Of a DNA stretch of 64,000 nucleotides, positions 5,292 through 47,250 are shown piece after piece. Below the pieces are notes generated by a model that was given only the letters and a program-made list of their open reading frames with translations, was not told the origin of the DNA and did no database searches. The stretch lies in the NCBI GenBank assembly GCA_028291545.1, contig JAQGHR010000052.1:62001-126000 (forward strand), written 5' to 3'. Within the stretch, counting starts at the first letter, position 1, and each line of letters begins with the position of its first letter. The position numbers and the translations under genes are program-made. Source of the DNA: Planctomycetota bacterium. GTDB lineage: Bacteria > Planctomycetota > Planctomycetia > Isosphaerales > Isosphaeraceae.

Positions 5292-5799
5292 CGGTTGCTC
5301 CGTTGCGGACCTCTGCGGAAGTGGCGAGGGTTCCGGCGTCGGGCCGTTTCCGCCTCACGCCATTGTATCGAGGGCCGGATGCCGCCGCCCGTCGGGGGAG
5401 GAGAGCCGCAGGTGCCGGCACATGTCTCGAACCTTGGCGCAGTGGCGCATTTTCAGCAGCGGCGATTTTTTCGGGACCTCGATCGTGGATATCTTGAGAC
5501 GTACACGGAGAAAATCGAAATCGCAAACAAATAGGAAGGCAACCACCGTTGTCAGTCCACCGACCGGGGGTAGGGAACCATTTTTTCACGATTCGTCCTG
5601 GATTTCTTGGGTCTTTTTGAATGTTGAACGACCCAATGTTCGGGCAGGTGTCATGTGCATCACCCTGCCGTGATCGGGGAGCCATGCACGAGTCGCCGCC
5701 GACTCGTGCATGGCAACTCGGAGATGATGCTCGTTCTCCGCACCATTCACGCCGGTGTCATCGGGGCGGCAGGTCATCCCGCCGCCCCACTCGAAATGT
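5292..5799. other. Gene-poor spacer with hairpins
   Basis: I find no convincing gene here. The stretch 5490-5640 is clearly more AT-rich than its surroundings. It contains a perfect 15-bp stem-loop (5681-5714), two copies of the TGACACC leader (GGTGTCA on + at 5647-5653 and 5754-5760), and a GC-rich hairpin just after the downstream gene's stop (about 5763-5795, GGGGCGGC / GCCGCCCC). Confidence 0.5.
5681..5714. terminator. Perfect 15-bp stem-loop
   Basis: GCCATGCACGAGTCG at 5681-5695, a 4-base loop, and its exact reverse complement at 5700-5714. There is no T-run on either side, so it is either a factor-dependent terminator or an RNA-processing/operator site between the minus-strand gene array and the DUF4419 gene. 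Confidence 0.4.
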
Positions 5800-6270
5800 T
5801 CAAGCCGCAAGGTCTTCGCTGGTCAAGCCGAACGCATCCAGTGCCGCCGCAAGCTCTGCCGGATCATCCGCACCGGCATCCACCGCCCAGTCCAGCCAGC
5901 CGTTGATCGGATCCGACCGTTCGGTTGGGTGGGGACGACCCTGGAAATCCATGTCGTGTCGGGTCATCCCGGCCCTGTAGTCGTAAACGTCAGGGCTTTG
6001 TCCTCGACCCCCTATCTTGCGGTCGTACCGAACCCACAAGATCGCCCATTTGAGCAGGGTGCGGATCATCGGCTCGGGGTTCTTGCCCCTGACGACCAGC
6101 CGGCTCCACTGGTCCCACATCTTGCCGATCATCTCCGCCACCGCATCGTCCCGCTTGCGTCGGTGCCACTTTCTAAAGGAATCGTGAGCCGCCGCCGTCG
6201 TCCGCTTGAACGCCAGCGCCATGAACCTGTCCTGCTCCGCCCGCCAGTCGATTCCGTCGATCATGTCCAT
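5800..6270 (-). CDS. Conserved hypothetical protein of planctomycete type (sigma-region-2-like helix bundle)
   Basis: Protein of 156 residues. The central block RRKRDDAVAEMIGKMWDQW followed by GKNPEPMIRTLLKWAILWVR is a pattern I know from a large planctomycete family whose helical N-terminus resembles an ECF sigma region 2 but which lacks an obvious region 4. GGAG occurs about 12 bases upstream of the ATG at 6270. It is the most downstream gene of the minus-strand array. It may bind DNA or RNA polymerase; this is not shown by the sequence. Confidence 0.6.
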   Translation of the reverse strand: MDMIDGIDWRAEQDRFMALAFKRTTAAAHDSFRKWHRRKRDDAVAEMIGKMWDQWSRLVVRGKNPEPMIRTLLKWAILWVRYDRKIGGRGQSPDVYDYRAGMTRHDMDFQGRPHPTERSDPINGWLDWAVDAGADDPAELAAALDAFGLTSEDLAA

Positions 6271-6385
6271 CGCCTGCGTCTCCGATCAGGGCCGTTGGTT
6301 GATTCCGACGGCCCTGACCGGGGTGTCAGGGATGGCGAGGCTACGGTTAGTCCGGGCGATCAGGCCGGTGGTCGAGGCGTCATCA

Positions 6386-6610
6386 TCAATGTGCGCTCAA
6401 GGGCTCCACCCCCAGGAGCCGCAGGCCATAGCTCCCGGCCTCGGCGAGTTGGACGATCAGTTCACCCGGCTCGTCGAAGACAGGCACGACACGCAACCGG
6501 TGACAGAGTGCGGGGGCCGACCGGAACCCGTAGAATCTACGGGCTTGGCGTGCGTCATCGTCGGCCCGGAAGCGGAACCCAAGCCCGTATAATCTACCGG
6601 CATGTCGCAT
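6386..6610 (-). CDS. Small hypothetical protein partly encoded by the palindromic repeat
   Basis: Possible protein of 74 residues. Its first half (GRLYGLGFRFRADDD, ARRFYGF) is encoded by two copies of the CCCGTAGAATCTACGGG-type palindrome and looks like repeat-derived sequence. The second half (RVVPVFDEPGELIVQLAEAG, then LLGVEPLSAH) reads like a normal protein. The true start could be internal. It ends 58 bp before a TGACACC copy. Either a short real gene extended by repeat insertion or a decaying fragment. Confidence 0.4.
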   Translation of the reverse strand: MRHAGRLYGLGFRFRADDDARQARRFYGFRSAPALCHRLRVVPVFDEPGELIVQLAEAGSYGLRLLGVEPLSAH

Positions 6611-6656
6611 GTCATCGTCGGCCCGATGAAGGAGCCGAACCCGTAGATTCTACCGG
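6527..6656. repeat. Three tandem copies of a 56-57-bp unit built on a palindrome
   Basis: CCCGTAGAATCTACGGG at 6527-6543, CCCGTATAATCTACCGG at 6584-6600 and CCCGTAGATTCTACCGG at 6640-6656. The segments between share GTCATCGTCGGCCCG. Single related copies occur at 11441-11457, inside a gene, and 42375-42391. The core GTAGAATCTAC is self-complementary. Confidence 0.75.
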
Positions 6657-6676
6657 TTCGGCCTTCGTCGGCGGTG

Positions 6677-6922
6677 TCAGGCGGGCTCGAACTTGAAGTA
6701 GAACCTCGGCGACCCTTGGAACTTCAGGCTGCCCTTCACGCCATCGCACTTGCGGCGCACCACGACCAGCGGGGCAGCGAAGCCGATCACGTCATAGTCA
6801 TCCTGGAGTTGCCCCGTGTCCCACACCTGCCCGTGCTTGTCTTCGAGGGCCTCTCGGCTGCCGGGGTCGGCGTTGATCTCGGCGATCATCTGGCGGCGGG
6901 CGGGCTCGGTCGGGTCGGTCAT
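6677..6922 (-). CDS. Small conserved hypothetical protein (planctomycete family)
   Basis: Protein of 81 residues starting MTDPTEPARRQM. The pattern EINADPGSREALEDKHGQVW followed by GFAAPLVVVRRKCDGVKGSL and a final PRFYF is one I recognise as a family of about 80-residue planctomycete proteins present in many copies on chromosomes and plasmids; no function is known. The upstream in-frame ATG at 6958 would add 12 residues and is less likely. The stop codon is the TGA of a TGACACC motif. All-beta C-terminus, no catalytic residues evident. Confidence 0.7.
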   Translation of the reverse strand: MTDPTEPARRQMIAEINADPGSREALEDKHGQVWDTGQLQDDYDVIGFAAPLVVVRRKCDGVKGSLKFQGSPRFYFKFEPA

Positions 6923-7014
6923 GGCTTGTCCTTTGTTGGTTGCGGACGTTGATCTCACACTGGTCTTGCCGGTGTCAGGTTGCGATGATCTGGTTCAGGT
7001 AGTGCCGGAGCGGG

Positions 7015-7326
7015 TCAATATTCGTCCGGCAACAACACCGTCGTGCTGGAGCGGCGTCCGTTGTCGTCGGCGGCCTCGGTGATGATCCAGAGCTTCTCTC
7101 CTCGCAGCGTCCTGTACGCCGAGAGCAGCCGGGAGCCGTCGATCAGGGCCTCGTCGTTGAGGAGTCGGTCTTCCTCGCAGAGATCGGCACCCCAATAGCC
7201 ATCAAGATGCGCCCCGAGGAAGACCTCGGGGCACTGGCCGCTGGCTTGCATGGCTTCCAGGGCACCGGGCGTAACGCCGATCCGGCCGGGGTGGAACTTC
7301 GCTCGGGTACTCTCGATCGTGCTCAT
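7015..7326 (-). CDS. Conserved hypothetical protein (plasmid/island family)
   Basis: Protein of 103 residues. The features are RIGVTPGALEAMQASGQ near residue 18, a HLDGYWGADLCEEDRLLNDE block and a C-terminal strand pair KLWIITEAADDNGRR / STTVLLPDEY. I know this pattern from many plasmid-borne proteins, sometimes misannotated as a type I restriction subunit; it has no methylase or nuclease motif. It belongs to the minus-strand accessory array and is preceded by a TGACACC leader (7373-7379). Confidence 0.7.
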   Translation of the reverse strand: MSTIESTRAKFHPGRIGVTPGALEAMQASGQCPEVFLGAHLDGYWGADLCEEDRLLNDEALIDGSRLLSAYRTLRGEKLWIITEAADDNGRRSSTTVLLPDEY

Positions 7327-7430
7327 CGTGTCGATCCTATTCGGAAGGGTGGCTGTTCATATCCTCCTCGCCGGTGTCACTCAGGGACGGTCAGGTGACC
7401 GTCCCTGAGTCATTCATTTGCCCAACGACT

Positions 7431-7673
7431 TCACAGGGAGCCACACTCCCGACAGAGCCAGATTTCCTCTCCTGTCTCATGGTTTTCGGCCCAGAGGTCC
7501 ACGTCAGGCGTGGCCTCGCCGCATTCGTCGCACCCGTGATGGACGTTGCGGAAGTGATCCCGAGGTCGTGCCGGTTTCCTCGCCGCCTCCTCCTCGAAGC
7601 CGAAGTAGATCTGACCCTCATGGTCGTGGATCTCGATCTCAAGGTGCGCCTGCCGTTCACACATTGTCCGCAT
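7431..7673 (-). CDS. Small zinc-ribbon protein
   Basis: Protein of about 80 residues (start MRTMCERQAHLEI at 7673; a second ATG three codons on is equally possible). The C-terminal half holds CDEC and, 23 residues later, CREC, giving a four-cysteine zinc ribbon. The N-terminal half (HLEIEIHDHEGQIYFGF) is a short beta segment. Part of the minus-strand array. A long inverted repeat (GGGACGGTCA / TGACCGTCCC) lies between its stop and the next TGACACC copy and may end or separate the transcripts. Function unknown. Confidence 0.6.
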   Translation of the reverse strand: MRTMCERQAHLEIEIHDHEGQIYFGFEEEAARKPARPRDHFRNVHHGCDECGEATPDVDLWAENHETGEEIWLCRECGSL

Positions 7674-8019
7674 CGTGCGTCCTCGCCTCGGGTCGCCTCG
7701 GGAGGGGTCGCTCGTTGCGACCCCGATGCCCCGAGTCACGGTGTCAGCCGGTCATCCTCTGCTCGGCGGGTTCGGCGAAGGTGCGGTCCCAGTAGCGGTC
7801 GAGGTTCTAGTCGCCCGGTTCCTCGCCACTTCGGAGCAGTCGTGAACATGGGTTCGATGAAGGCTTCAGGTCGCATGTGGTCGTTTTTCATACTGAGAGT
7901 GAGCAAAAGTGCTTTGGGCTCGACACCAAGGCCACAGAGTGCGGAGAATAGCCGCTATCACCCTCCAACCCGTCGAGGTGGCGGGATGTTCGCATCAAAC
8001 AAGATTTGGACTCGTAATC
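7674..8019. other. Divergent intergenic region
   Basis: No gene seen. It separates the minus-strand gene ending at 7431 from the plus-strand gene starting at 8020. It holds a TGACACC copy (7740-7746) and a GC-rich hairpin GGGGTCGC / GCGACCCC at about 7706-7726. Confidence 0.4.
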
Positions 8020-9057
8020 ATGGCCTTCGGCCCCGGACTTTGGGCTTCGTCCGCCGCTTATTATGACCATCTCCGCTTTCGTAACGACGGTGACTGGCTG
8101 GAGCGGGAGGGAGCCACGAGACACGGGCTTGACGTTTCACTCTCGAACTGCGAGAGGTTCTGGAAATACCACGTCACCCCTTCGACGAACCGCCCTCTGG
8201 ATCAGGACATGAGAGCATCTGCTAGTGATGAAACGCATTTTCTTGCACAACGGAGCTACTCAGTCTTTTATCATCTGGTGGAGGCGTCTGAATACTTGTC
8301 GTTGGCCCGCCGAGGGGAGTGGGGTGGGCCTCGCTATAGCAACTGGCATAACTCCATTGTGTATGGCGGGAACGCCTTGCAGCTTTTCCGTGGTCTCCAG
8401 GAGGCTGTAACGGATTATCTTGCGAGTCGCCTCCATCGAGCAATTCCACTCTTTTTGGACTGGGGTGCCACCTGGAAGCCTCGATACGATGCCATCTCGG
8501 GATATCGAAATTACTTGACGCACCAGGGCTTGCCCCAGACGTTGCTTGTCACCCAGCCAGACGGTTCGGTGAGCAAGGAGCCGATCGCCCTCAAGAAAGA
8601 GCATGTTCTCAACCACACTCCGCTTGCCTGGTCGCAGGCCGTACGGAATTATCGAAACGATCCGACGAAATGGTCCGGGCTTTTGGACGTTGGCACTGAT
8701 CTGCTGGACGAAACGATTGACTATCTGAATGACGCATATGGCCACATTTGCGCTACATTGAATCCCCTTCTTGTCGATGCGGCCTACCAGCAGCTTTGGG
8801 GATGGGATGCGACCCACGGCCCAGGGATTCTGTTCCCTGTCCCGCCTTTTGGCCCGGCTTCTATGGCAGCAGGACCACCGCCCTCTGCAACCTTGGGTTC
8901 GCAGGGTCCACAGGGGGCCATGGGAGTCGTAGTTCCCCCCCTAACGGGGATCCTAACCGCCCCCGCCTCACCCACATCGGTATCGCCAGGAGTCGGTTCC
9001 CCCGGTCCGGGTTCAGGAGTCCGCATTGTCGGACCTCTGCCCGGTGGAAATCCCTAG
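8020..9057 (+). CDS. Hypothetical protein with Pro/Gly-rich tail
   Basis: Protein of 345 residues if it starts at MAFGPGLWASS (8020); the frame is open from 7909. Residues 1-285 look like a folded alpha-rich domain with many aromatic residues (RSYSVFYHLVEASEYLSLA, YGGNALQLFRGLQEAVTDYL). The last 60 residues are Pro/Gly-rich (GSQGPQGAMG, SPGVGSPGPGSG) and look disordered. Base composition is lower in GC than the neighbours, and it is the only plus-strand gene inside the minus-strand array, so it was probably inserted separately. The helical core resembles HEPN-type or Cthe_2314-like proteins only loosely; I assign no function. Confidence 0.65.
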   Translation: MAFGPGLWASSAAYYDHLRFRNDGDWLEREGATRHGLDVSLSNCERFWKYHVTPSTNRPLDQDMRASASDETHFLAQRSYSVFYHLVEASEYLSLARRGEWGGPRYSNWHNSIVYGGNALQLFRGLQEAVTDYLASRLHRAIPLFLDWGATWKPRYDAISGYRNYLTHQGLPQTLLVTQPDGSVSKEPIALKKEHVLNHTPLAWSQAVRNYRNDPTKWSGLLDVGTDLLDETIDYLNDAYGHICATLNPLLVDAAYQQLWGWDATHGPGILFPVPPFGPASMAAGPPPSATLGSQGPQGAMGVVVPPLTGILTAPASPTSVSPGVGSPGPGSGVRIVGPLPGGNP

Positions 9058-9404
9058 CATACATGCGCACGTGGATCACGACGCTCAATCGCAGGTGACC
9101 AAGTGGGTTCGGTACGTGCTGTCGTCCAGTGCAAGGTCGGGCCTGAGTGTCCTGGGTCGTAGGGTACAGTCCGATGGCCTCCCCGTCGTCTTCTTCGTCC
9201 GGGGCATGATCTCGGACGGGGGCGAGACAGCGATGGGACGCTCGGCGGGGCCGCCTCTCCCTAGCACGCTGCTGTCGAAGTGGCGGACGTTCGACGTGAT
9301 GAACTCGCATGGTCGGCCTCTCTTTGGGGCGGTTGGATAAAGACCGAGGGACTAGCTGGGCAGCCGCCGAGGCGACGTGCACCTCGGCGGGTCATTACGG
9401 GGTG
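9058..9404. other. Intergenic region with hairpin
   Basis: No supported gene. It contains an inverted repeat CCGCCGAGG (9364-9372) / CCTCGGCGG (9382-9390) just before a TGACACC copy at 9401-9407, the same arrangement as in the other array spacers. Confidence 0.4.
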
Positions 9405-9737
9405 TCAGCCCTCGTCGTTGGGCAGATGGCGGGTCAGCACGGACGAGGGGATGTGGCTCGTCCCGCCGCCCTCGCCGTAGTCGTCGTACTTGAAGGTGCG
9501 ATCCTTCTTGCGCAACTCGGAGAGAGCGGCTCGTGCGTGCTCCCAGGTCTCCCACTGCTCCACGAACAGCCGCCTGGGTTGCCCGGCGAGGACGGAGCTT
9601 CGGTCGTAGACCGAGTGGACGTAGAGAACCGGCCTGGAGTGCCAGTAGGTCTCGCCCTTTCCTCGCTCCAACGAGAACGTGCAGCGTGGGCGGCAAGTCA
9701 TTCGGATGTCGTTGATGCGGTCGAGCAACTCGCTCAT
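9405..9737 (-). CDS. Hypothetical protein
   Basis: Protein of 110 residues (start MSELLDRINDIRM at 9737; an ATG at 9767 is the alternative and lies in the leader hairpin). It has an amphipathic N-terminal helix, a strand pair and a charged helix (WETWEHARAALSELRKKD), with a glycine-rich C-terminus. Its stop TGA is the first three bases of a TGACACC motif. Member of the small-gene array; no family recognised. Confidence 0.55.
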   Translation of the reverse strand: MSELLDRINDIRMTCRPRCTFSLERGKGETYWHSRPVLYVHSVYDRSSVLAGQPRRLFVEQWETWEHARAALSELRKKDRTFKYDDYGEGGGTSHIPSSVLTRHLPNDEG

Positions 9738-9819
9738 GCTGTCCTCCGGAAGGGGCGTCGTGTTCAACGCCCATCACCGGAGGTGTCAGCAGATCAGCGT
9801 CCGTGCCGACGGTCGTCCC

Positions 9820-10221
9820 TCAGTTGAACTGCCACGCTGCATAGCGGTGGGGTGCCATTCCGGAACGGGGCAGCGACTCCCCGTGATATCGCACAGGGAA
9901 CGGCTGGTCGCAGCCCTCCCGCCCGTGGACCAGGACGTGATCCAGGTCGATCACCCGCCCCGACCCGTCGTAGTGGCGGGAGTCCTCGGGATAGTCGCCG
10001 AGGTCCGACTCGGAGACGTGAAGCTGATGCCCGAAGGTCGGGTCGTCGCTGAGTTCGTCGATGGCGTCGGAGATCGTGTCGGCCTCGGCGACGAGGAAGA
10101 GCGGCGTATTGGAGCCGCCGATCTCGATCAGCCAGGTCTTGCCGAACCAACCGCCGGGGTTCAAGACGGGAACGTCCGTCAGTTCGTGATCATGGAGCGT
10201 GCACGAGGCCGTGATCATCAT
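9820..10221 (-). CDS. Hypothetical protein
   Basis: Protein of 133 residues starting MMITASCTLHDHEL at 10221. The frame is open much further upstream, but that part is the shadow of the neighbouring gene in another frame; the real start follows the hairpin leader at 10225-10270 and a GGAG. The middle reads LFLVAEADTISDAIDELSDD, an alpha/beta pattern, and the end holds RVIDLDHVLVHG. Part of the small-gene array, unknown function. Confidence 0.6.
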   Translation of the reverse strand: MMITASCTLHDHELTDVPVLNPGGWFGKTWLIEIGGSNTPLFLVAEADTISDAIDELSDDPTFGHQLHVSESDLGDYPEDSRHYDGSGRVIDLDHVLVHGREGCDQPFPVRYHGESLPRSGMAPHRYAAWQFN

Positions 10222-10267
10222 CGTCAAGACTCCGAGGAGGGTGTTCGTCACGCCCTCCTCCGGGGTG

Positions 10268-10870
10268 TCAGCCGACGACTTTCGCAGTCGTGCCCGCATG
10301 GCGGTCGATGAGCCGGCATGATTCGCCGGGGTCGGTCCGCAGGAAGGCTTCGGCCTGGACCAGACTCGTGAAGCCCCGGTAGTGCCGGCGCATCGTCGAG
10401 AAGCCGTCGATCGTGGCCTCTGCCTCCCACGAGACCTGATAGCAGGAATGCTCGATCTCCCTGTTCCGCACCCACTCCCAGCATTCCTGCTCGAAATCGG
10501 GATCGTCCTCACGACCCGCCCCATAGACGACATCGAGCCGGACCCGCCCGAGCACGTTATATGACTCGGCGGCGACCTCCAGGGCGGCGTTGGCGTGGTA
10601 GAGGTAGAGGCTCGGGACGGCCTTGAGATTACGGCTGCGGAGGTACTGGGTGTGCTCGCAGCCGAACATGTGGCCGTCCCGCCACATCCTCTTCTTGAGC
10701 AGGCCGTAGTCCCGTTGGTTGAGGATCTTCTGGACCTTGTAGAGCAGGCGTGACTCCGCCCCGTACCAGCCCGGTGCCGACCACGAGAGCTTGCTCCGGT
10801 TGGGGCGGAACACGGGGTCGCCGGGTTCACGGTATACGTAGCAGCGGCATCCGACGATCGAGACGATCAT
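10268..10870 (-). CDS. Hypothetical protein
   Basis: Protein of 200 residues starting MIVSIVGCRCYVY. It has a basic aromatic centre (LLYKVQKILNQRDYGLLKKR) and a C-terminal part with many Cys/His/Trp residues (CWEWVRNREIEHSCYQVSWE). The ATG overlaps the stop of the upstream gene (ATGA), so they are translationally coupled, and its own stop TGA begins a TGACACC motif. No domain recognised. Confidence 0.6.
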   Translation of the reverse strand: MIVSIVGCRCYVYREPGDPVFRPNRSKLSWSAPGWYGAESRLLYKVQKILNQRDYGLLKKRMWRDGHMFGCEHTQYLRSRNLKAVPSLYLYHANAALEVAAESYNVLGRVRLDVVYGAGREDDPDFEQECWEWVRNREIEHSCYQVSWEAEATIDGFSTMRRHYRGFTSLVQAEAFLRTDPGESCRLIDRHAGTTAKVVG

Positions 10871-11097
10871 GACTGTTCTCCGAGGTGGGGGCTGTTCGCC
10901 CTCACTTCGGAGGTGTCAGGTCTCGTCGCCGCTGCGCCCTCGTCCCCGGCCCCATGCGGCCGTCGGCATCGGGCGAAATACGTCCCGATGCCGGGGACGA
11001 TGCAGACCTCGTGATCCTCCGCATCGCCGCCGCATTCGGCGCAGTACTCGAACTCGAACAGGCGTTCGAGCCACTCCTCGGGCGTCTCATCCGACAT
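10867..11097 (-). CDS. Small hypothetical protein with Cys-x2-Cys
   Basis: Protein of 76 residues starting MSDETPEEWLERLFEFEYCAECGGDAEDHEV. It has one CAEC pair and an FARCRRPH string, so a zinc-binding knuckle is possible. Unlike its neighbours this frame reads through a TGACACC copy near 10913 and stops in a 4-bp ATGA overlap with the next gene. Either the motif is coding here or a small frameshift has fused the 3' end past its original stop. Start supported by GGAG upstream. Confidence 0.5.
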   Translation of the reverse strand: MSDETPEEWLERLFEFEYCAECGGDAEDHEVCIVPGIGTYFARCRRPHGAGDEGAAATRPDTSEVRANSPHLGEQS

Positions 11098-11149
11098 GTT
11101 CATCTCCGGTGCAGGGGTGTTCGTCACGCCCCCTTCGCCGGTGTCAGCA

Positions 11150-11551
11150 TCATCCCGCCAGCGGCAAGAGTCGCTGGATCGAGTCGTAGCGGGGGATGTC
11201 AGAGCAAGCATTCTCGATGAACGAGAAGGCCGCATGGTGCTCGACCTCCGACGACGCCTTCTCCGGCGTGAAGTCGTGCGAGAGCATGACGACGAGGGCG
11301 TAGAGCTTGCGGAGCATCGGGTAGGTCATCGTCGGATAGGTCCGATCCCAGTCCAGCCAGTCGTCCGTGCCGCTGCGATGCGGATTGCCCCGGAAGACCT
11401 CGTGCCAGTAATCCCGATCCTCGTCCTTCGAGAAGTCGAACCCGTAGAATCTACCGATCCCGACGTAGCCGCCGGAGCGCCCCATCCAGGTGTACTCGAC
11501 CTCGACCGGGGTGCCGTCGTACAGGCTGTTGGAGCAGTCGGAATCGGTCAC
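11150..11551 (-). CDS. Hypothetical protein
   Basis: Protein of 133 residues beginning at a GTG (VTDSDCSNSLYDG) that overlaps the stop of the upstream gene (GTGA). The central segment YVGIGRFYGFDFSKDEDRDYWHEV includes a copy of the CCCGTAGAATCTAC palindrome (11441-11457) used as coding sequence. The C-terminal half is helical (MLRKLYALVVMLSHDFTPEKA). Array member, function unknown. Confidence 0.6.
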   Translation of the reverse strand: MTDSDCSNSLYDGTPVEVEYTWMGRSGGYVGIGRFYGFDFSKDEDRDYWHEVFRGNPHRSGTDDWLDWDRTYPTMTYPMLRKLYALVVMLSHDFTPEKASSEVEHHAAFSFIENACSDIPRYDSIQRLLPLAG

Positions 11552-11871
11552 GAGGCGACCGGCGTCTTCCACGCCCAATCGAAGAGCTTGTCCTCGACCT
11601 CCTCGTACTTGGCTTGGGCCTTTTCCAGCCACTCGGGGTTGTCGAGCCAGGTCTCGCCGTCGCCGTAATAACCGGCGTTGCGGTAGACCTCGATCAGATG
11701 GTCAAAATCGAGATCGACCCCGTGGCACTTGACGTTGAAGGCGAAATAACTCCGACCGTCATGCCCGTAGGTTGAGTAGTAACCGCCGACCGAGGCGAGG
11801 TGGGCGGCGATGTCGCTGCGGGAGCGGAGCGGCGTGCGGTAATAACGGGGCGTGTTCGTCTTGCGGGGCAT
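11548..11871 (-). CDS. Hypothetical protein
   Basis: Protein of 107 residues starting MPRKTNTPRYYRTPL. It has a strand-rich middle (GHDGRSYFAFNVKCHGVDLDF) and a helical acidic end (WLEKAQAKYEEVEDKLFDWA). The stop overlaps the next gene's GTG, and a TGACACC leader hairpin (11880-11919) precedes it. Array member, no family recognised. Confidence 0.6.
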   Translation of the reverse strand: MPRKTNTPRYYRTPLRSRSDIAAHLASVGGYYSTYGHDGRSYFAFNVKCHGVDLDFDHLIEVYRNAGYYGDGETWLDNPEWLEKAQAKYEEVEDKLFDWAWKTPVAS

Positions 11872-11920
11872 GTCAGGACTCCGAAGGAGGTGTTCGTCAC
11901 ACTCCCTCCGGCGGTGTCAT

Positions 11921-12616
11921 TCAACCGATCGACTGGCACTCCTCGGCATCGACGAAGACCGTCCTGCCCGAGTAGGACCAGGGCTCGATGCCTTCGCCCT
12001 CGTCCATCGTGACGACCACGCCTTCGACGGCGTTATTCTGCTCGCCCGGCGGACAACAGCGGACGACCTTCCCGGTGCCCTTGAGGCGATCCCCGCTCGG
12101 CATCCGTGCATCGAGCCGGACACGCTCTCCCGGTTGGAACGTGTCGTCGGGATCGGGGTCGGTGTCAGGCGTGAGCGCTTCCGCCTCGACGATCTCATAG
12201 GCAAGATCGGCAAACTCCGAGAACTCGGAATGGAACGGCGACGGGTCGATCTCGATGCCCAGCTTCGCCCTGGCGGTCTCGATGTTGTCGTCGTAGTCAT
12301 CTTCGAGGCCGACCCCGTGTCCTCGGCAGCCCATGAGGACGTAGTAGAGGGCGTCTGCCCACTTGTCCTCGGGGATTTCCATCGAGGCGAACATCTCGCC
12401 GACGCCACGACCCCACGCCCGTGCCAGGTCGGCGACGTGGGGGCGGATCAATCCGAGGAGCTTCTCCCTGGACTGATCGGGGCAGATGTCCGTGATCTCC
12501 TGCCCGGCGGCGAAGCAGAAGCCCGCCTCTTCCCGTGCGTCCGCCCACTCGGAGGCGAAGAAATCCTGGGCGGCTTCGGCCATCACGTCGTCGCTCAGGT
12601 CGATCGTTGCGAGCAT
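11921..12616 (-). CDS. Hypothetical acidic protein
   Basis: Protein of 231 residues starting MLATIDLSDDVMAEAAQ. The start at 12616 follows a leader hairpin (loop GATGCACATAACA) and a CCGGAG; upstream extension is a shadow. It has an acidic helical N-terminal two-thirds (LLGLIRPHVADLARAWGRG, AYEIVEAEA) and a C-terminal small beta module with a GERVRLDARMPSGDRLKG / GVVVTMDEGEG pattern, resembling an SH3-like or KOW-like barrel. Stop lies one base before a TGACACC copy. Function unknown. Confidence 0.6.
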   Translation of the reverse strand: MLATIDLSDDVMAEAAQDFFASEWADAREEAGFCFAAGQEITDICPDQSREKLLGLIRPHVADLARAWGRGVGEMFASMEIPEDKWADALYYVLMGCRGHGVGLEDDYDDNIETARAKLGIEIDPSPFHSEFSEFADLAYEIVEAEALTPDTDPDPDDTFQPGERVRLDARMPSGDRLKGTGKVVRCCPPGEQNNAVEGVVVTMDEGEGIEPWSYSGRTVFVDAEECQSIG

Positions 12617-12675
12617 CTTCTCGGCTCCGGTCAGAGGGGTGTTATGTGCATCCCCTCCGCCGGTGTCATCCCTTG

Positions 12676-13281
12676 TCAGGAGGCGAGCCTGTAGCCGAGA
12701 GCGTTGAAGGCGTCCCGCAGGTCCGTCTCCTCGGGGTAGCCTCCCCGATCGTCCCGGTTCTCGACGGCGCTTTGGCGATGCTCCCGGAACCACGAGAACA
12801 CGTCGCCCTGCCAGCCTTCCGGCAGTTCGTAATCACGCTTGACCCGCCATGCGGCGTCGTCGATGTTCTCGATCGTGGCGTCGTGCTCCCGCTTGCCGTA
12901 GTCGCCCTCGTCAAGGATCGGATACTCGGCTAACCGCTCGGCGAGTCCGTGATAGGTCCGGAACGCTTCGGTGATGTCGCCGTCCTTGAAAACTCGGATC
13001 GAGAAGCCATCGACGTGGCCCACGGCCCAATGGCTGTGAGACTCGAAAACCACTTCGGGGTCGTCGCTTTCGCTGTATGGTGTCAGCGCCTTGGCGATGG
13101 CGGCGGCATTGCTCTCGTCGAGCAGGTCGCTGTCCCGGTTGTGGGTGTAGAGGATCGCCCAGTTGTCGGCGTCGTCCAGGTCTCGGGCTCGGTCCCACAC
13201 GAAGCAGGTGAACGTCCGCCAGTTGCCCGCCGCTTCCCGTGCAGCGTCCTCGATCGTCATCTCTCCGACCATCGTGCTCAT
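12676..13281 (-). CDS. Hypothetical protein
   Basis: Protein of 201 residues starting MSTMVGEMTIEDAAREAAGNW; GAGGA precedes the ATG at 13281. It contains WAILYTHNRDSDLLDESNA, then WAVGHVDGFSIRVF and a C-terminal RDAFNALGY. The order of segments (helix, strands with a GHVDG turn, helix) recalls antirestriction-associated hypothetical proteins carried by plasmids, but I cannot name a family. It lies directly downstream of the ArdC-like gene on the same strand, separated by a leader hairpin. Confidence 0.6.
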   Translation of the reverse strand: MSTMVGEMTIEDAAREAAGNWRTFTCFVWDRARDLDDADNWAILYTHNRDSDLLDESNAAAIAKALTPYSESDDPEVVFESHSHWAVGHVDGFSIRVFKDGDITEAFRTYHGLAERLAEYPILDEGDYGKREHDATIENIDDAAWRVKRDYELPEGWQGDVFSWFREHRQSAVENRDDRGGYPEETDLRDAFNALGYRLAS

Positions 13282-13369
13282 GTCGGTCCTCGATTCGGGG
13301 GGTTGAGTTGTTCTCGCCCCTTCATCGCCGGTGTCAGGGCGGCGTTCGTCCCGCCGCCCCTATCGCTTG

Positions 13370-14314
13370 TCAGCAAGCCATGACCGCTTCTTCTTCGGGC
13401 ACGTCTGCGGTCGGTCGGCTGAAGGACAGGAGATAGTCCGCCGCCTTCGAGGCTTGCGATGAGGCCGAGAAAATGAAGCGAGGGTCGCCCTTCATCGCCC
13501 GGAGCCAGTTCGCCAGGTAGGCGACGTGGTTGCCCAGGTTGTCCGACGCAGGGACGCCGAGTTCTCGTGCCAGGTAGCAGGCGCCGATCTCGGCGATCAA
13601 CTCGCCCATCGCATACGAGTTGTCCGCTTCCTTGCGGCTCCAGTTCAGCCTGGTCGAGTGCTCGGTGGCGTGGACAAGCTCATGGAGCACGGTTTCGTAG
13701 TAGTCGATCGGGGTGGTGAACGTGGGCTTCGGAGGCACCTGGATGTAATCCAGCGCCGGGTTGTAAAACGCCTGGCCACCTCCGTATCGGATGCTGATAC
13801 CCGTGGCGGCGATGGCCTCCTCGGCGGGCTCGTAGTCGATGACCGTGGCGTCGTCGCCGTCGGTGTCAGCCATGCCGGATCGAAGGTGGTCAAGTTGGCC
13901 ACCCTCCACCTGTTCGACGTTGAAGACGGTGTAGGACTTCATGATGAAGAAGCGGTCTTCCTCATCCTTGCCGGTGTCATCCTTGACTCTCTTCGTGATC
14001 GGGCTCCAGAAGACGATCTGAGTGCCCCACTGGCCCTCGGGCACGCCGTCGGGCCGTCGCATGACCTGGCCCCCCATATCCTTCCATTGCCGGAAGGTCG
14101 CCCACCAGCGGGATGTGAGGCCGTGACGGGCCGCCGCCATGTCGAGCAGGATCGGGTTGATCCCCCGGTACGGCTTCTTGCTCACGGCGTTGGCCGGTGC
14201 GCCGGCGTTGGGGCCGACCGGCCAGGGGCGACGCCAGGGCGGCACGTTTCCGGACTCAAAGTGGGCGACGATCTGGGCGGTGATCTTCTCACGCAACTGC
14301 TGCTGGTTGGCCAT
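13370..14314 (-). CDS. ardC: ArdC-family antirestriction protein (ssDNA-binding domain plus metallopeptidase)
   Basis: Protein of 314 residues. Residues 1-130 match the N-terminal ArdC ssDNA-binding domain (ITAQIVAHFESG, PPWRRPW, KKPYRGINPILL, YTVFNVEQ). The C-terminal zincin domain has HELVH at 211-215 and a downstream glutamate in GELIAEIGACYL near residue 242 as the likely third zinc ligand. ArdC proteins travel on conjugative plasmids and protect incoming DNA from host restriction. Here it is the first gene of the minus-strand array, with its own TGACACC leader at 14357-14363, and it lies 2 kb from the BREX operon. The name is by family; activity is not shown. Confidence 0.85.
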   Translation of the reverse strand: MANQQQLREKITAQIVAHFESGNVPPWRRPWPVGPNAGAPANAVSKKPYRGINPILLDMAAARHGLTSRWWATFRQWKDMGGQVMRRPDGVPEGQWGTQIVFWSPITKRVKDDTGKDEEDRFFIMKSYTVFNVEQVEGGQLDHLRSGMADTDGDDATVIDYEPAEEAIAATGISIRYGGGQAFYNPALDYIQVPPKPTFTTPIDYYETVLHELVHATEHSTRLNWSRKEADNSYAMGELIAEIGACYLARELGVPASDNLGNHVAYLANWLRAMKGDPRFIFSASSQASKAADYLLSFSRPTADVPEEEAVMAC

Positions 14315-14386
14315 GGCTGCCTCCGGTCGTCGGGTGGTGTTGACGACGGAGACGAAGGTGTCAGGACATGCTTGGAATCAGTTCCC

Positions 14387-14506
14387 TCGAATACGGTAGA
14401 GCGGCTGAACAATGAGTTGAAGCGGCGGACGAGCGTTGTCGGGCCGTTCCTGGACGACGGAACGGCGTTACGTCATGTGAGCGTCGTGGCGAGGGAGATC
14501 GACTAG
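14387..14506 (+). pseudogene. IS256-family (mutator type) transposase C-terminal remnant
   Basis: Reading on + gives SNTVERLNNELKRRTSVVG, then LRHVSVVAREID and a stop. This is the characteristic last 40 residues of IS256/mutator transposases. No matching N-terminal part, terminal inverted repeats or target duplication are visible, so it is a fragment of an old insertion. It lies just upstream of the Lit-like gene and within the 14315-14645 spacer, which has no other gene. Confidence 0.75.
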
Positions 14507-16049: not shown

Positions 16050-16262
16050 GTGACCAACCTGCGGGATTATCTCAGGATCTCGGAGGCGGCCGAGTACCTC
16101 GGGGTGGCCCCGAACACGCTCCGCAACTGGGAGAAGGCGGGGAAGATCATGACGCACCGTCATCCGGTGAATCGCTATCGGCTCTTCCGCCAGAAAGACC
16201 TCGACTCGATGTTGCGACAGGTGGAGCGGACCGCCCGCAGGGGTCGGCCCGCCTCGCCTTGA
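16050..16262 (+). CDS. MerR-type helix-turn-helix protein, BREX operon regulator candidate
   Basis: Protein of 70 residues from the GTG at 16050. LRISEAAEYLGVAPNTLRNW followed by NRYRLFRQKDLDSML is a complete MerR/excisionase-like winged helix without an effector domain. Its stop is 32 bp before the ATG of pglW, or overlaps a TTG start of pglW (TTGA), so the two are co-transcribed. Small HTH genes at the head of BREX or Pgl operons are plausible autoregulators; the role here is inferred from position. The frame is open further upstream to 15753, but that part has no protein-like pattern. Confidence 0.75.
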   Translation: MTNLRDYLRISEAAEYLGVAPNTLRNWEKAGKIMTHRHPVNRYRLFRQKDLDSMLRQVERTARRGRPASP

Positions 16263-16294
16263 AGAGAAAGGGCGGCTTGGGGCCGAAGCTCAGC

Positions 16295-19200
16295 ATGGAA
16301 TCTCCCCGCTGGAACATCATCACCCCCTCGAAGTTCGAGTGGGAACGGCGGGGCCTGGACTTCGTCCGCAAGGCGTTGCCCGACCACGATCCGTATCGTG
16401 CGTGGTCGAACTTCGAGTTCCAGGCCGACGACGGGGCGATCTACGAGGTCGATCTCCTCGTCCTCACCAAGCAGGGCTTCTGGCTGGTCGAGTGCAAGGC
16501 GTGGGAGGGCCGGATCTCCGGGGACTCGGGCTCCTGGTATCGCACCACCGGCGGCAAGGCGAGGTCCGAGGACAACCCCGTCGTCCTGGCCAACCGCAAG
16601 GCGAAGGCCCTGTCGTCGCTGCTCAAGTCCCGGCCCGCCGCCGAGAAGGTCAAGCTGCCCTGGCTCGACGCCCTCGTCTTCCTCTCGGCGGACGACGTGC
16701 AATGCGACCTCGCCGGCACCGCCCGCAACCGGGTCTGCCTGAAGGATCGTCCCGCCCAGGGAGATCGGCCCGAGCGCAAGGGCATCCTCGCCGCCCTGAT
16801 GGACCGTGACTGTCCGGGCGTGGATCCCGACCCCCGCTCGACGATCGACACGAGGGTTGCGAAGGCCCTGTCCCGTGCGATGGAGCAGGCCGGCATCCGC
16901 CCGTCGCAGCGGGCCCGCCGGGTGGGCGATTACGTCCTCGGCGAGTTGATCGCCGACGGGGCGGGCTATCAGGACTGGCTCGCCAAGCACACGTCGTTCG
17001 ACGACGTGCATTGCCGGGTGAGGCAGTATACGGTCGCCCAGGCGTCCTCGGAGGAGGACCGGCAGCGGCTGAGGCGGGCGGCGGCCCGTGAGTTCCAGAT
17101 CATCCAGACGCTCGACCATCCCGGCATCCTGCCCGTGCTCGACTACAAGGAGCACGAGAACGGCCCGGCTCTGCTCTTCCGCTACCTCGACCCCAATGCC
17201 GTCCGCCTCGACCACTACCTGGCGACCAACGCCGTCAAGCTCACCACCGACATGCGGCTCGACCTGCTCCGCCAGGTCGCCGACGCCATCCGCTACGCCC
17301 ACCGCAAGCGGGTGATCCACCGGGCGCTGAGCCCCCAGAGCATCCTGGTCACCGACGCCTCTTCGGCGACGCCCAGGCTTCAGATCTACAACTGGCAGGT
17401 GGGCGTGCGGGAGACCGCCTCGACCACGGGGCGGGCGACCGTGATCGAGGATCTGGTCGAGTCGCAAGCCTTCGTCTACATGTCGCCCGAGGCGATGGCG
17501 GACGGTCGGAAGGTCACCGAGGCGTCGGACGTGTTCTCGCTCGGGGCCATCGCCTTCCACCTGTTCGCCTCCCGGCCGCCCGCCACCGGGCCGACTGACC
17601 TGGCGAGGATCCTCCGGGAGCAGAAGGGTCTGAGCATCTCCTCGGTCCTCGACGGGGCCGGGCCGAAGCTGGAGGAACTGATCCGGTGGAGCACCCACCC
17701 GGACGTACTGACCCGCATCGGCTCGGTCGAGGACTTCCTGACGCTCCTCGATGATGTCGAGGACGAACTGACCGCACCGGCCCAGTCCGTCGTCCTCGAC
17801 CCATTGCAGGCCAAGAGGGGGGACCGGCTCGAACACGGGTTCGTCGTCCAGCGGGTGCTTGGCCAGGGTGCCACGGCGACGGCCCTGCTGGTCACGAAGG
17901 GCGACGAGGAGTTCGTCCTGAAGGTGGCGATGGCCGAGGATCAGGACGATCGCCTGCACGAGGAGGCCCAGGCCCTCCGCTCGATCCACAGCGAGTTCAT
18001 CGTCGCCATCGAGGACGAACTGGTCATCAACGGCAGGACCGTCCTCGTCCTCCAGAAGGCGGGCGACAAGACCCTGGCCGCCGTGCTCCGGTCCGAGGGC
18101 GTGCCCGGCCTGGAGATGCTCGCCCGCTACGGGGACGACCTACTCTCGGCGGTCTCCTCGCTGGAACGGCACGGGGTGGCCCACCGGGACATCAAGCCCG
18201 ACAACGTCGGCATCCGCTCCCTGACGAAGGGGCGGAACCAGTTGATCCTGTTCGACTTCTCGCTGGCGCACGCACCGCTGGACAACATCCGGGTCGGCAC
18301 CCCCGGCTACACCGACCCGTTCCTCGCCCACCGCAAGCCCCGGCGGTGGGACTTGCAGGCGGAGCGGTACTCGGCGGCGGTGACCCTCTACGAGATGACC
18401 CTCGGGGTGGGCGTGCTCCCCCGGTGGGGCGACGGCAAGTCGGACCCGGCGATGACCGAGGCCGAACTGGTCATCGACGCCGAGAAGTTCGACCCCGGAG
18501 TCCGGGAGGGCCTCGTCGAGTTCTTCCTCAAGGCGTTGCACCGAGACCCCAACGAGCGGTTCCACAACGCCGACGAGATGCGGTGGGCCTGGCAGAACGT
18601 CTTCAAGGAGGCGGAGCAGAGGAAGATCACGACCCCCGGCGGCGAGGAGGTCGATCTTCGGGTCTCGCTGGAGCAGGCGGACCTGACAACGCCGGTCGCC
18701 GCCCTGGGCCTGAGCACCCGTGCCCAGAACGCCCTGGAGCGTGCCGACATCCTCACCGTCCGCAACCTGCTGGAATACCCGATCGGCGACATCCACCTGA
18801 TGCGTGGTGTCGGCAATCAGACCCGTCGTGAAATCATCGAGTTCCTCACCGGCCTGCGTGGCCGGTTCCCCAACGTCGAGACCGGCCGGAACAAGGACCA
18901 GCCCCCCTCGGACCTGCCCTCCGGCCCTCCCGGCCTCGAATGGATGGAGCACCGGGCCGTCGGCGTGATGGTCCCCAAGAAGGACGCTGAGTGGCGCATC
19001 CGCACGGCCCTGCTCGGCGTGCCGGCTGTGGAGTCCACGCCCCCCGACCGCTGGCCCGGCCAGTCCGAGATCGCCGATCTGCTCGGCATCAGCCGGGCCC
19101 GTGTGGGGCAGGTCGTGACGGCCGACCGGATCCGCTGGAGCAAGGACGCCGCCATCACCTCGTTCCGCCACGAACTCTGCGAGCAGATCCAGCGGCTAGG

Positions 19201-20536
19201 CGGAGTCGTGTCGATCCCCGAGATCATCGACTTGACGATCCTAGTGAGGCCCTCCGCCGGCACACTGGAGCCGGTCCGGCAGCAGCGAGCGGCGTCGGCG
19301 GTGGCCAGGGCGGCGGTGGAGACCGAGACCTCGATGGCGGTCCCCCGCTTCCAGGTCCGTCGGGTCGGCGGCAAGGTCGTCGTGGCCTGCTCCCAGGAAC
19401 TGGCGGCGTTCGCCGAGGAGCTTGGACGGAAAGCCGACCGCCTGGCGGCATCGGACCCGCTGCCGCCCCCCTTGCGGGTGTTCCAGGAACTCTACGAGGC
19501 CAGCCCGCCGCAGCAGCCCCACGGCTGCCAGCCGCTCGGCAACGAGCGACTGCTGAAGCTCGCCGCCGCCATGAGCCGCACGGCCGCCGTGTCCTCCCGC
19601 CAGGAGCTATATCCCCGTGGGCTGGCGTCGGAACGTGCCTTGCGCCTGGGCATCGGGGCGTTGTCCGGGCTGGGGCTCGGCGACGGCGAGGAGGGCTTCA
19701 CCATCGAGCAGGTCCAGGATCGGCTGAGGAGCCGATATCCGGAAGCCGAGCCGCTGCCGAGCCGACCGGACCTGGACACACTGTTGCATCGGGTCGGCCT
19801 CGATGTCCGCTGGGACGACGAGAAGAAGGTCTATCGCCGCCGGGACGCCACGAACTTCGTCACCTCGGGCTCGTCGATCCCCAGGCGGCACACCACGGCG
19901 ACCTCGACCCGCAAGGTCGAGGTCACGCCCGACCTGGCGGAGGCACGCCAGTTCGAGGAGCGGTTGCGGCACGCCCACGGCGACGGCGGGTTCCTGGTGC
20001 TGACCGTCCGCCCCAGCCGGATGCGTCGGTGCGAGGACGAGCTTCTACGGCGGTTCCCCATCGAGCGGGTCTCGTTCGACGACCTCCTCTTCGAGGCCCT
20101 CCGCAGGGAAGCCGATGAATTGGAGATCGACTGGGCGATCATCGAGCACGCTGATGGGGCGGATTGGTCGGGCCAGGATTGGAACAACCTCCTGCATCTG
20201 GTCGCTCGGGTGGCCCCGAAGGTCGTCACCGAGTTGTGCGACCGCAGCGAGCACCTGCTGCTGGTCAATCCGGGGCTGATCGCCCGATACGACCAGATGG
20301 CGATCTTGGAGACGCTCCGGGACAAGGTCGGCCACGAGGTGCCTTGCCCCGGTCTCTGGGTCTTGGTGGCGACGGACGGGCAGCATGACCTGCCGATGCT
20401 CGACAACGCTGAGATCCCGCTGATTACGCCCGGCCAACGGGCCAGGGTGTCCGAGGCGTGGGTGGACAACGTCCACCGTGGCCATCCGAACGGGGCTGTC
20501 GCTCGTCCCGTCGCCGCCAAGAAGGGAGGCGGCTGA
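16295..20536 (+). CDS. pglW: BREX type 2 serine/threonine kinase PglW (NERD + pseudokinase + kinase)
   Basis: Protein of 1413 residues from the ATG (a TTG at 16259 would add 12). Domains in order: a NERD nuclease-related domain (about 15-130, VDLLVLT and ECKAW); a first kinase-like domain (about 220-500) where HRD is HRALSPQS and DFG is replaced by YNWQVG, so probably inactive; a second kinase domain (about 515-790) with HRDIKPDN at about 629 and DFSLA; a helix-hairpin module like the RNA polymerase alpha C-terminal domain (ALGLSTRAQNALERADI); and a sigma-region-4-like HTH (IADLLGISRARVGQV). PglW phosphorylates in the Pgl/BREX-2 phage-resistance system. First large gene of the operon; the next gene starts 2 bp after its stop. 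Confidence 0.9.
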   Translation: MESPRWNIITPSKFEWERRGLDFVRKALPDHDPYRAWSNFEFQADDGAIYEVDLLVLTKQGFWLVECKAWEGRISGDSGSWYRTTGGKARSEDNPVVLANRKAKALSSLLKSRPAAEKVKLPWLDALVFLSADDVQCDLAGTARNRVCLKDRPAQGDRPERKGILAALMDRDCPGVDPDPRSTIDTRVAKALSRAMEQAGIRPSQRARRVGDYVLGELIADGAGYQDWLAKHTSFDDVHCRVRQYTVAQASSEEDRQRLRRAAAREFQIIQTLDHPGILPVLDYKEHENGPALLFRYLDPNAVRLDHYLATNAVKLTTDMRLDLLRQVADAIRYAHRKRVIHRALSPQSILVTDASSATPRLQIYNWQVGVRETASTTGRATVIEDLVESQAFVYMSPEAMADGRKVTEASDVFSLGAIAFHLFASRPPATGPTDLARILREQKGLSISSVLDGAGPKLEELIRWSTHPDVLTRIGSVEDFLTLLDDVEDELTAPAQSVVLDPLQAKRGDRLEHGFVVQRVLGQGATATALLVTKGDEEFVLKVAMAEDQDDRLHEEAQALRSIHSEFIVAIEDELVINGRTVLVLQKAGDKTLAAVLRSEGVPGLEMLARYGDDLLSAVSSLERHGVAHRDIKPDNVGIRSLTKGRNQLILFDFSLAHAPLDNIRVGTPGYTDPFLAHRKPRRWDLQAERYSAAVTLYEMTLGVGVLPRWGDGKSDPAMTEAELVIDAEKFDPGVREGLVEFFLKALHRDPNERFHNADEMRWAWQNVFKEAEQRKITTPGGEEVDLRVSLEQADLTTPVAALGLSTRAQNALERADILTVRNLLEYPIGDIHLMRGVGNQTRREIIEFLTGLRGRFPNVETGRNKDQPPSDLPSGPPGLEWMEHRAVGVMVPKKDAEWRIRTALLGVPAVESTPPDRWPGQSEIADLLGISRARVGQVVTADRIRWSKDAAITSFRHELCEQIQRLGGVVSIPEIIDLTILVRPSAGTLEPVRQQRAASAVARAAVETETSMAVPRFQVRRVGGKVVVACSQELAAFAEELGRKADRLAASDPLPPPLRVFQELYEASPPQQPHGCQPLGNERLLKLAAAMSRTAAVSSRQELYPRGLASERALRLGIGALSGLGLGDGEEGFTIEQVQDRLRSRYPEAEPLPSRPDLDTLLHRVGLDVRWDDEKKVYRRRDATNFVTSGSSIPRRHTTATSTRKVEVTPDLAEARQFEERLRHAHGDGGFLVLTVRPSRMRRCEDELLRRFPIERVSFDDLLFEALRREADELEIDWAIIEHADGADWSGQDWNNLLHLVARVAPKVVTELCDRSEHLLLVNPGLIARYDQMAILETLRDKVGHEVPCPGLWVLVATDGQHDLPMLDNAEIPLITPGQRARVSEAWVDNVHRGHPNGAVARPVAAKKGGG

Positions 20537-20538
20537 AC

Positions 20539-24189: not shown

Positions 24190-24191
24190 CG

Positions 24192-30577: not shown

Positions 30578-30580
30578 ACG

Positions 30581-47094: not shown

Positions 47095-47206
47095 GCCATC
47101 GCCCCTGATACGATTTCTGATACGATTTCGCCCCACGATCGTATCAAATCGTATCAAACTCCGCCAGAAACCGCTGGAAAACAAGGGTTATTTTTCAAGA
47201 GCAACG

Positions 47207-47250
47207 GTCTTCTAAACCGTAGGTCGTTGGTTCGAATCCAACCGGGCGTA
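47207..47250 (+). repeat. att site: 3' fragment of tRNA-Arg(TCT), copy 1
   Basis: The 44 bases begin GTCTTCTAAACCGTAGGTCG and end CCAACCGGGCGTA; they comprise the anticodon loop CTTCTAA (anticodon TCT), variable loop, T-arm and acceptor 3' strand of a tRNA-Arg. Just upstream, AGAGCAACG extends the match into the D-arm side, and ACGGT/ACCGT form the anticodon stem, but no D-arm or 5' acceptor (ACGCCCG expected) follows, so it is not a complete tRNA. The same 44 bases recur exactly at 59705-59748. Confidence 0.85.

What the first reader, a model, noticed from the sequence alone, without database searches (positions are those of the whole stretch)
5647..14363. A repeated TGACACC-hairpin leader between small minus-strand genes
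Sixteen copies of TGACACC (minus strand) lie in the spacers of one small-gene array, all in one orientation. About 0.5 would be expected by chance in 8.7 kb for a 7-mer on one strand, somewhat more in GC-rich DNA. Beyond the heptamer the spacers share a layout: G-rich arm, a loop close to GTGACGAACA or GATGCACATAACA, C-rich arm, CCGGAG, ATG. Several stop codons are the TGA of the motif. This looks like a shared leader that would coordinate the whole set of unknown genes with ArdC. Some in-gene Asp-Thr codons also give TGACACC, so the hairpin and position are needed to call a copy.
Basis: seen in the sequence. Interest (0 to 1): 0.8.

Follow-up and report, generated by a model that had tools for sequence, protein, structure and literature searches.

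The report
Element-specific start boxes in gene arrays
In this planctomycete and several relatives, most genes of an array headed by an anti-restriction gene carry the same two-part DNA word about 50 bases before their start codon; its spelling differs between arrays even inside one genome, so it likely works as each mobile element's private switch for turning its genes on together.

Summary
The heptamer is real: TGACACC occurs 20 times on the minus strand of the array and never on the plus strand there; 16 copies lie in spacers. It is the first half of a bipartite box, GRCACC-N12-GT, about 52 nt before a start codon. "GT" sits at exactly offset 18 in 20 of 37 copies from four related arrays (shuffle mean 1.4, largest 8 of 2000) and in 26 of 54 copies from ten further planctomycete arrays (mean 2.2, largest 9). 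Flanks differ by array, not by host: three genomes hold arrays of two spellings. The hairpin is secondary: strong in 8 of 13 window copies, weak before g12 in four species, no pair shared over 36 aligned copies, no G-U bias. The gene set resembles plasmid establishment regions, but most array genomes lack the two relaxase families searched. Best reading: an element-specific leader box that likely co-controls translation of the array genes. A per-gene promoter/operator is a close rival; sequence alone does not decide. I found it neither in Rfam nor in the papers searched. Closest known kinds are mycobacteriophage SAS/ESAS and pLS20 EGeRS.

The parts
14315..14363 (-). box and leader of g01 (ArdC)
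   Evidence: GACACC 48 nt before ATG; hairpin z -4.0
13370..14314 (-). g01, ArdC (N-terminal ArdC plus MPTase-PolyVal)
   Evidence: Pfam PF08401 E 3.8e-34, PF18818 E 9.1e-38
13282..13336 (-). box and leader of g02
   Evidence: 54 nt; model R1 hit
12676..13281 (-). g02, unknown, shared with many related arrays
   Evidence: 4 of 45 genomes of the order and 6 of 343 of the phylum, own genome counted; 2532 database homologues among 8000 scored candidates
12617..12668 (-). box and leader of g03
11921..12616 (-). g03, unknown
   Evidence: homologue in L021
11872..11919 (-). box and leader of g04
11548..11871 (-). g04, unknown
   Evidence: open frame
11150..11551 (-). g05, starts in a GTGA overlap with the g04 stop and has no box of its own
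   Evidence: sequence; no Pfam match
11098..11146 (-). box and leader of g06
10867..11097 (-). g06, 76 aa, stop overlaps the g07 ATG
   Evidence: translation; no Pfam match
10871..10918 (-). box and leader of g07, inside the g06 reading frame
   Evidence: hairpin z -5.6
10268..10870 (-). g07, unknown
   Evidence: 65-66% identity in G032
10222..10270 (-). box and leader of g08; stop of g07 is the TGA of the box
9820..10221 (-). g08, unknown
   Evidence: homologues in L020, L021, L023, L024, L034, L037
9738..9788 (-). box and leader of g09
9405..9737 (-). g09, unknown
   Evidence: homologues in L021, L023, L024
9401..9407 (-). TGACACC overlapping the g09 stop, no start codon at the usual distance
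   Evidence: sequence
7674..7746 (-). box and longer leader of g11
   Evidence: 72 nt; hairpin z -2.5
7431..7673 (-). g11, small CxxC protein
   Evidence: homologues in L021-L024
7327..7379 (-). box and leader of g12, no strong hairpin
   Evidence: z +0.35
7015..7326 (-). g12, unknown, wide family
   Evidence: 25 of 392 phylum genomes, own counted; 125 plasmid records
6923..6977 (-). box and leader of g13
   Evidence: hairpin z +0.26
6677..6922 (-). g13, unknown; its stop is the TGA of the next box
   Evidence: homologues in L020, L034, L037
6611..6679 (-). box before a 74-aa gene (6386-6610)
   Evidence: gene has a match in L022, E 4.7e-8; not included in the box counts
6271..6328 (-). box and leader of g14
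   Evidence: hairpin z -6.9
5800..6270 (-). g14, unknown
   Evidence: open frame, no Pfam match
5712..5760 (-). box and leader of a 41-aa frame (5586-5711)
5647..5653 (-). last TGACACC, followed by an inverted repeat, no start at the usual distance

Best explanation
The repeated element is a bipartite, array-specific start box (GRCACC-N12-GT, then a G-poor A/C-rich tract and the Shine-Dalgarno site) that stands about 50 nt before the start codons of an array of ArdC-associated genes, and it likely acts in the mRNA leader, where a predicted factor of the mobile element would bind it and switch on translation of the array genes together. Shown: the box, its fixed internal spacing, its tight distance to the start codon, its frequent position at or just after the stop of the gene before, its presence before ArdC and before a divergent gene, and different spellings in different arrays of one host. 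Inferred: that it works in RNA rather than DNA, that an element-encoded factor reads it, that it controls expression, and that the set serves establishment in a new cell. The hairpin in many copies is probably an aid and not the recognised feature.
For: Box to start, in 96 of 118 genes of 14 arrays where a box was found: median 52, quartiles 49.75-54, 81 of 96 within 45-58 nt. In 11 window genes the spread is 3.2 nt to the start against 29.8 nt to the stop of the gene before. GT at offset 18: 20 of 37 and 26 of 54, far above shuffles. Of 91 boxes, 78 have a recognisable upstream frame; it enters the box by more than 6 nt in 5, and in 17 it ends at +2, its stop codon being built into the box, which fits a stretch kept free of ribosomes. 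Between L094 and L096, 90 columns just upstream of the leading box are 87-93% identical, then 40-60% after it, so the array promoter may lie above the first box. No sigma-70 site in the array beyond chance: 1 found, on the other strand, against 1.4 expected. Same genome, two spellings: G032 (L021 and L022), G394 (L107 and L108), G282 (L094 against L103 and L104). Divergent genes at L023:14099 and L024:8301 carry the box too.
Against: Stems between box and start show no sign of RNA selection: G-T against A-C mismatches are 26 against 27, and 39 against 45 over all sets; sense and antisense fold equally well (-18.0 and -18.2 kcal/mol, p 0.93). A fixed 12-nt gap between two half-sites is as natural for DNA binding. 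The g07 box lies inside the g06 frame. The contrast above the first box seen in L094/L096 is not seen in L104/L108 or L023/L024. No reader gene is identified: the ParB-like protein is 80% identical between L022 and L023, whose boxes differ, and the window lacks it. A sequence model made without the window finds only 3 of 12 window boxes plus one in-gene site, and the model with the window finds no box in the arrays of other spelling except one weak L020 hit. Of 20 further g12 loci, the commonest 7-mer exceeded 60 shuffles in 5; in 3 it equalled them and held GACACC; in 12 there was no such word. L022, L035-L037, L039 and L106 have words that do not fit GRCACC well; they were read by eye and left out of the counts of 54 and 96. 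L020 ardC has no box at the usual distance. The starts of the four TGACACC arrays were picked partly because a box was visible.
Confidence: 0.42

Rival explanations
1. The box is a DNA site: each copy would be that gene's own promoter or operator, read by an element-encoded sigma-like factor, polymerase, activator or repressor, as in EGeRS2 plasmids or T7-like phages.
For: Two half-sites at fixed spacing; box before the first gene and before a divergent gene; a G-poor tract 20-34 nt after the box start would suit a melted region with a start point close to the Shine-Dalgarno site; no wobble signature; overlapping g05 has none.
Against: The spacing is about 5 nt too short for a -35/-10 pair (recalled geometry); leader lengths are unusually constant for a promoter set; an extra conserved block lies above the first box in L094/L096; no sigma-70 or RNA-polymerase domain among the array proteins scanned with Pfam, though not every array protein was scanned.
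Confidence: 0.36
2. The box-hairpins are single-stranded-DNA promoters of a conjugative leading region (Frpo- or N4-like), each firing when the element enters as one strand.
For: ArdC is needed in the recipient (start of the abstract of PMC7213743, seen); related genes lie beside MobF in the Paludisphaera plasmid PALBO2 and on the strand opposite the tra operon in a conjugative Shewanella plasmid; arms vary while complementarity stays, without wobble bias.
Against: Arms of 8-21 nt are short for a -35 and -10 pair; hairpins are weak or missing before g12 in four species and z < -2 in only 13 of 47 copies of nine other arrays; TrwC is found in only 2 of 12 array genomes, in neither G000 nor G030, and PF03432 in 1 of 11.
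Confidence: 0.09
3. The box-hairpins are recombination sites of gene cassettes, as attC sites of integrons.
For: One orientation, small genes, a palindromic spacer before many genes, the stop codon often flush with the box.
Against: Gene order is largely kept between species; by eye the box has no inverted partner at the far foot; the integrase seen in the RuvB-type arrays matches only 2 of 14 arrays counted for boxes, L100 and L107; the box is tied to the following start, not to the preceding gene.
Confidence: 0.04
4. Chance or codon-usage artefact of GC-rich spacers.
For: Four in-gene copies exist (Asp-Thr codons in three of them).
Against: Twenty against zero by strand, fixed offset in independent arrays, de novo recovery.
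Confidence: 0.01

Closest known systems
SAS/ESAS of cluster K mycobacteriophages (PMC3203893 and PMC12699233, passages read)
   Same: Short asymmetric word repeated before many small genes mostly in one orientation, about half with an adjacent inverted repeat; inverted-repeat consensus differs by subcluster; function not settled
   Different: SAS is a different word close to the start codon; ESAS arms have a consensus sequence, here the arms vary freely; different host phylum, here with ArdC and outside recognised phages
EGeRS1/EGeRS2 of pLS20-family plasmids (PMC8708921, passages read)
   Same: Repeated sequence before ardC and other establishment genes, type differs between related plasmids
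   Different: EGeRS1 is 420-750 bp and EGeRS2 holds a promoter and a Reg operator; here about 20 nt, and before single genes rather than operons
Frpo/ssi single-stranded promoters (PMC11541004 and PMC9849209, passages read)
   Same: Noncoding stem-loop before anti-restriction and other leading genes
   Different: Frpo stem-loops rebuild -35 and -10; here the box is mostly unpaired and the hairpin is not shared
T7-type phage promoters (recalled)
   Same: About 20-nt sites before many genes, spelling differs between related elements around a shared core
   Different: No polymerase gene seen; no sequence similarity claimed

Membership tests
SAS/ESAS | GGGATAGGAGCCC (up to two mismatches) at translation starts | tested here: not met
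   Five matches in 14 array loci on both strands (window 1, L023 3, L104 1), positions not checked, against 96 boxes; the box is another word, about 52 nt before the start
SAS/ESAS | inverted repeat arms with a shared consensus | tested here: not met
   0 common pairs in 36 copies, arms differ
EGeRS1/EGeRS2 | over 60% identity to the plasmid sequences | not tested
   Their sequences were not fetched
EGeRS1/EGeRS2 | repeated before ardC and neighbouring genes | tested here: met
   Box before ardC in window, L023, L024, L034, L094, L096, L101, L104, L107, L108; not at the usual distance in L020
Frpo/ssi | stem-loop that rebuilds -35 and -10 boxes | tested here: not met
   One sigma-70-like site in 9.3 kb against 1.4 expected, on the other strand; arms of 8-21 nt
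Frpo/ssi | lies in the leading region of a conjugative element | tested here: inconclusive
   Related genes near a relaxase in PALBO2 and the S. baltica plasmid, and about 43 kb away in G031; no TrwC in 10 of 12 other array genomes; oriT not located
Integron attC | paired core sites and a neighbouring intI | tested here: inconclusive
   No inverted partner of the box by eye; integrase of the L037 type in 2 of 14 box arrays; neither an attC nor an IntI model was run
Known RNA families (Rfam 15) | match at gathering score | tested here: not met
   Only a tRNA hit at 47185 in the window; none up to E 0.5 in L094, L100, L107
Intrinsic terminator | GC stem followed by a T run | tested here: not met
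   Two array-strand terminator-like sites in the scan, neither in a box spacer

The most novel reading that the evidence does not exclude
Planctomycete mobile elements run private expression dialects: each element puts its own roughly 20-nt start box before most of its genes and encodes the matching reader, so that two elements in the same cell control their establishment and anti-restriction genes independently.
Probability: 0.35. Interest if true: 0.8.

Novelty: new variant of a known kind. Interest (0 to 1): 0.6.

Why it matters
It would mark, by sequence alone, whole sets of unknown genes that act with an anti-restriction protein across planctomycetes, a phylum whose mobile-element regulation is little known to me. 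It also gives a second case, in another phylum, of the unexplained start-associated repeats of mycobacteriophages.

Tried and rejected
Rejected: conserved hairpin as the defining feature (RNAalifold 0 pairs); the second model, meant to hold structure, came out without pairs. By a simple stem score the hairpins also separate only moderately from shuffles: 27 of 37 real spacers against 160 of 370 shuffled reach 18. Rejected: sigma-70 promoters, known RNA families, intrinsic terminators. Held unlikely: attC cassettes. Considered and dropped for lack of fit, by eye: ECF-type -35/-10 (gap too short), sigma-54. Not tested: nut-like antitermination, CsrA-like GGA loops. Led nowhere: viral contigs (two loci; only g02 matched there), g02 and g08 in plasmids (none), ArdC in plasmids (3053 records; none of the 30 listed rows planctomycete, the rest not seen), papers (no report of this box in the listings). 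Loci without an enriched word: 12 of 20 (L093, L095, L097, L098, L099, L102, L105, L106, L109-L112); several hold few genes. In L106 GGACC stands at the usual distance before several genes, by a pattern I chose. One spacer (L021, start 13436) was anchored on the wrong GACACC, and on the right one later.
Full report
1. The observation. TGACACC occurs 22 times in the 64 kb window against a shuffle mean of 7.3 (largest 14 of 100); 20 of the 22 are on the minus strand between 5647 and 14363. In the 9.2 kb array strand it ranks first for over-representation among the 400 commonest heptamers, 20 against 0.64 expected, with none on the other strand. The array genes run from ArdC (13370-14314; PF08401 and PF18818) to 5800; the others scanned reach no Pfam cut-off. 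One gene, g05, begins in a GTGA overlap with the g04 stop and has no box.

2. Relatives. g07 matches 2 of 45 genomes of the order and g02 4 of 45, the own genome counted in both. I fetched their surroundings. Gene order is largely kept: ArdC, g02, then variable genes, g08, g09, g11, g12, with a ParB-like gene before g11 in L021, L023 and L024. L021, L023 and L024 use GACACC/TGACACC before mostly the same genes. L020 uses GCGGACACC, often with the stop TAG overlapping, and L022 a word ending in ACCCTG, read by eye and not among the top heptamers. L022 and L021 lie in one genome, G032.

3. The wider set. A g02 profile hit 6 of 343 phylum genomes and a g12 profile 25 of 392, own genome counted. 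I fetched 6 and 20 further loci. In L034 the seven genes listed have CACCCGC. In the 20, a blind count of 7-mers in the 85 to 12 nt before automatically called genes exceeded the maximum of 60 shuffles in 5 (L094, L096, L100, L107, L108); in 3 (L101, L103, L104) the top word equalled it and held GACACC; in 12 no such word rose. The eight hold G[A/G]CACC. L035, L036, L037, L039 and L106 seem to have other related words, by eye only. G394 and G282 each hold arrays of two spellings.

4. The box. Aligned on GRCACC without gaps, GT stands at offset 18 in 20 of 37 copies of the TGACACC arrays (shuffle mean 1.4, largest 8 of 2000) and in 26 of 54 copies of ten other arrays (mean 2.2, largest 9); arrays of other spelling (L022, L035-L037, L039, L106) were left out. 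Offsets 20-34 are poor in G (0.19 and 0.11). A box was found before 96 of 118 genes of these 14 arrays; its distance to the start is median 52, quartiles 49.75-54, 81 of 96 between 45 and 58. In 11 window genes the spread to the start is 3.2 nt and to the stop before it 29.8 nt. Of 91 boxes, 78 have an upstream frame; 5 are entered by more than 6 nt and 17 have the stop built in at +2. The starts in the TGACACC arrays, L020 and L034 were chosen by hand, partly because a box was visible; those in L094-L108 were called automatically. A sequence-only model of 36 copies finds 10 of its 12 window copies and one in-gene site, and one weak hit (L020) in 48 other sources, so it does not recognise the other spellings; made without the window it finds 3 of 12 boxes and the in-gene site.

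5. The hairpin. Between box and start, z < -2 in 20 of 37 TGACACC copies (8 of 13 in the window), 5 of 8 in L020, 1 of 10 in L022, against 4 of 60 control stretches, and 13 of 47 in nine other arrays. Before g12 it is weak or absent in all four species. Aligned on the box, 36 copies share no pair. Mismatches in stems are as often A-C as G-T (27 and 26; all sets 45 and 39), and sense and antisense fold equally. So the hairpin is commoner than chance but in no common register, and nothing marks it as an RNA structure.

6. What carries it. Of 41 sources compared, 21 hold one of three modules and none holds two: ParB-like (L021-L024), a AAA-like protein (eight loci; no Pfam match, naming by eye), or a RuvB-like protein (nine loci), in seven of them with a tyrosine integrase (domains). 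The window has none, nor do eight other stretches of its contig, about 156 kb; the ParB slot holds a plus-strand frame instead. Upstream of the window's ArdC lies a Transposase_mut fragment, so this copy is likely cut off from its natural front. Related genes occur beside MobF in plasmid PALBO2 and opposite the tra operon of a conjugative Shewanella plasmid; G031 has MobF about 43 kb from its array, but G000 and G030 have none. TrwC is found in 2 of 12 other array genomes and PF03432 in 1 of 11, so a conjugative home is not shown for most arrays.

7. Mechanism. The tight distance to the start codon, the stop often flush with the box, the extra conserved block above the first box in L094/L096 (not seen as a contrast in L104/L108 or L023/L024) and the lack of sigma-70 sites favour a leader element acting on translation. 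The fixed half-site spacing, the divergent copies and the lack of wobble bias favour a DNA site. I commit to the first at 0.42 and hold the second at 0.36. Different spellings in one host point to an element-encoded reader; none is identified.

8. Known kinds. SAS/ESAS of cluster K phages (PMC3203893, PMC12699233; passages) match best in layout; EGeRS (PMC8708921; passages) match in gene set; Frpo (PMC11541004, PMC9849209; passages) in gene set only. The searches listed no report of this box.

Noticed in passing
window 16259-33984: BREX-like defence genes beside the array: NERD/kinase protein, DUF7008/Eco57I methylase, DUF6079-like, PglZ, DEAD helicase. In G282 arrays also lie near BrxA, BrxC and a methylase, with a Shedu-like gene on the other side.
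   Followed up: partly
window 14396-14503: 3' end of a Mutator-family transposase on the plus strand, directly upstream of the ArdC box.
   Followed up: partly
window 7909-9057: Plus-strand frame of 382 aa without Pfam match sits where relatives have the ParB-like gene; it looks like an insertion.
   Followed up: partly
window 5684-5711: Palindrome with 12-base arms and a 4-base loop starting at the first codon of the 41-aa frame after the 5760 box.
   Followed up: no
window 6525-6660: Several GTAGATT-TACGGG palindromic repeats downstream of the 6679 box.
   Followed up: no
window 47185-48555: tRNA match next to a tyrosine integrase and a D5_N primase (49160), possibly an integration site; ARAGORN reports no tRNA.
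   Followed up: no
L041 (NC_011665.1) upstream of 23080, 25960, 27647, 29646: A repeat of about 100 bases before four leading-region genes of the Shewanella plasmid, EGeRS- or Frpo-like in placing.
   Followed up: no
L094 and L096 upstream of ardC: Two tandem boxes and a conserved 90-base block above the first, holding the palindrome TTCTCATTTGAGAA in L094 (one base changed in L096).
   Followed up: partly
L021, L023, L024 and window, before g02: A second hairpin with a GGGACGAAC-type loop just upstream of the box, kept in four species.
   Followed up: no
L021 and L024 g02; L023 ardC: g02 holds a stop in L021 and is split over two frames in L024; the L023 ardC frame is only 95 aa, so these arrays look partly decayed.
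   Followed up: no
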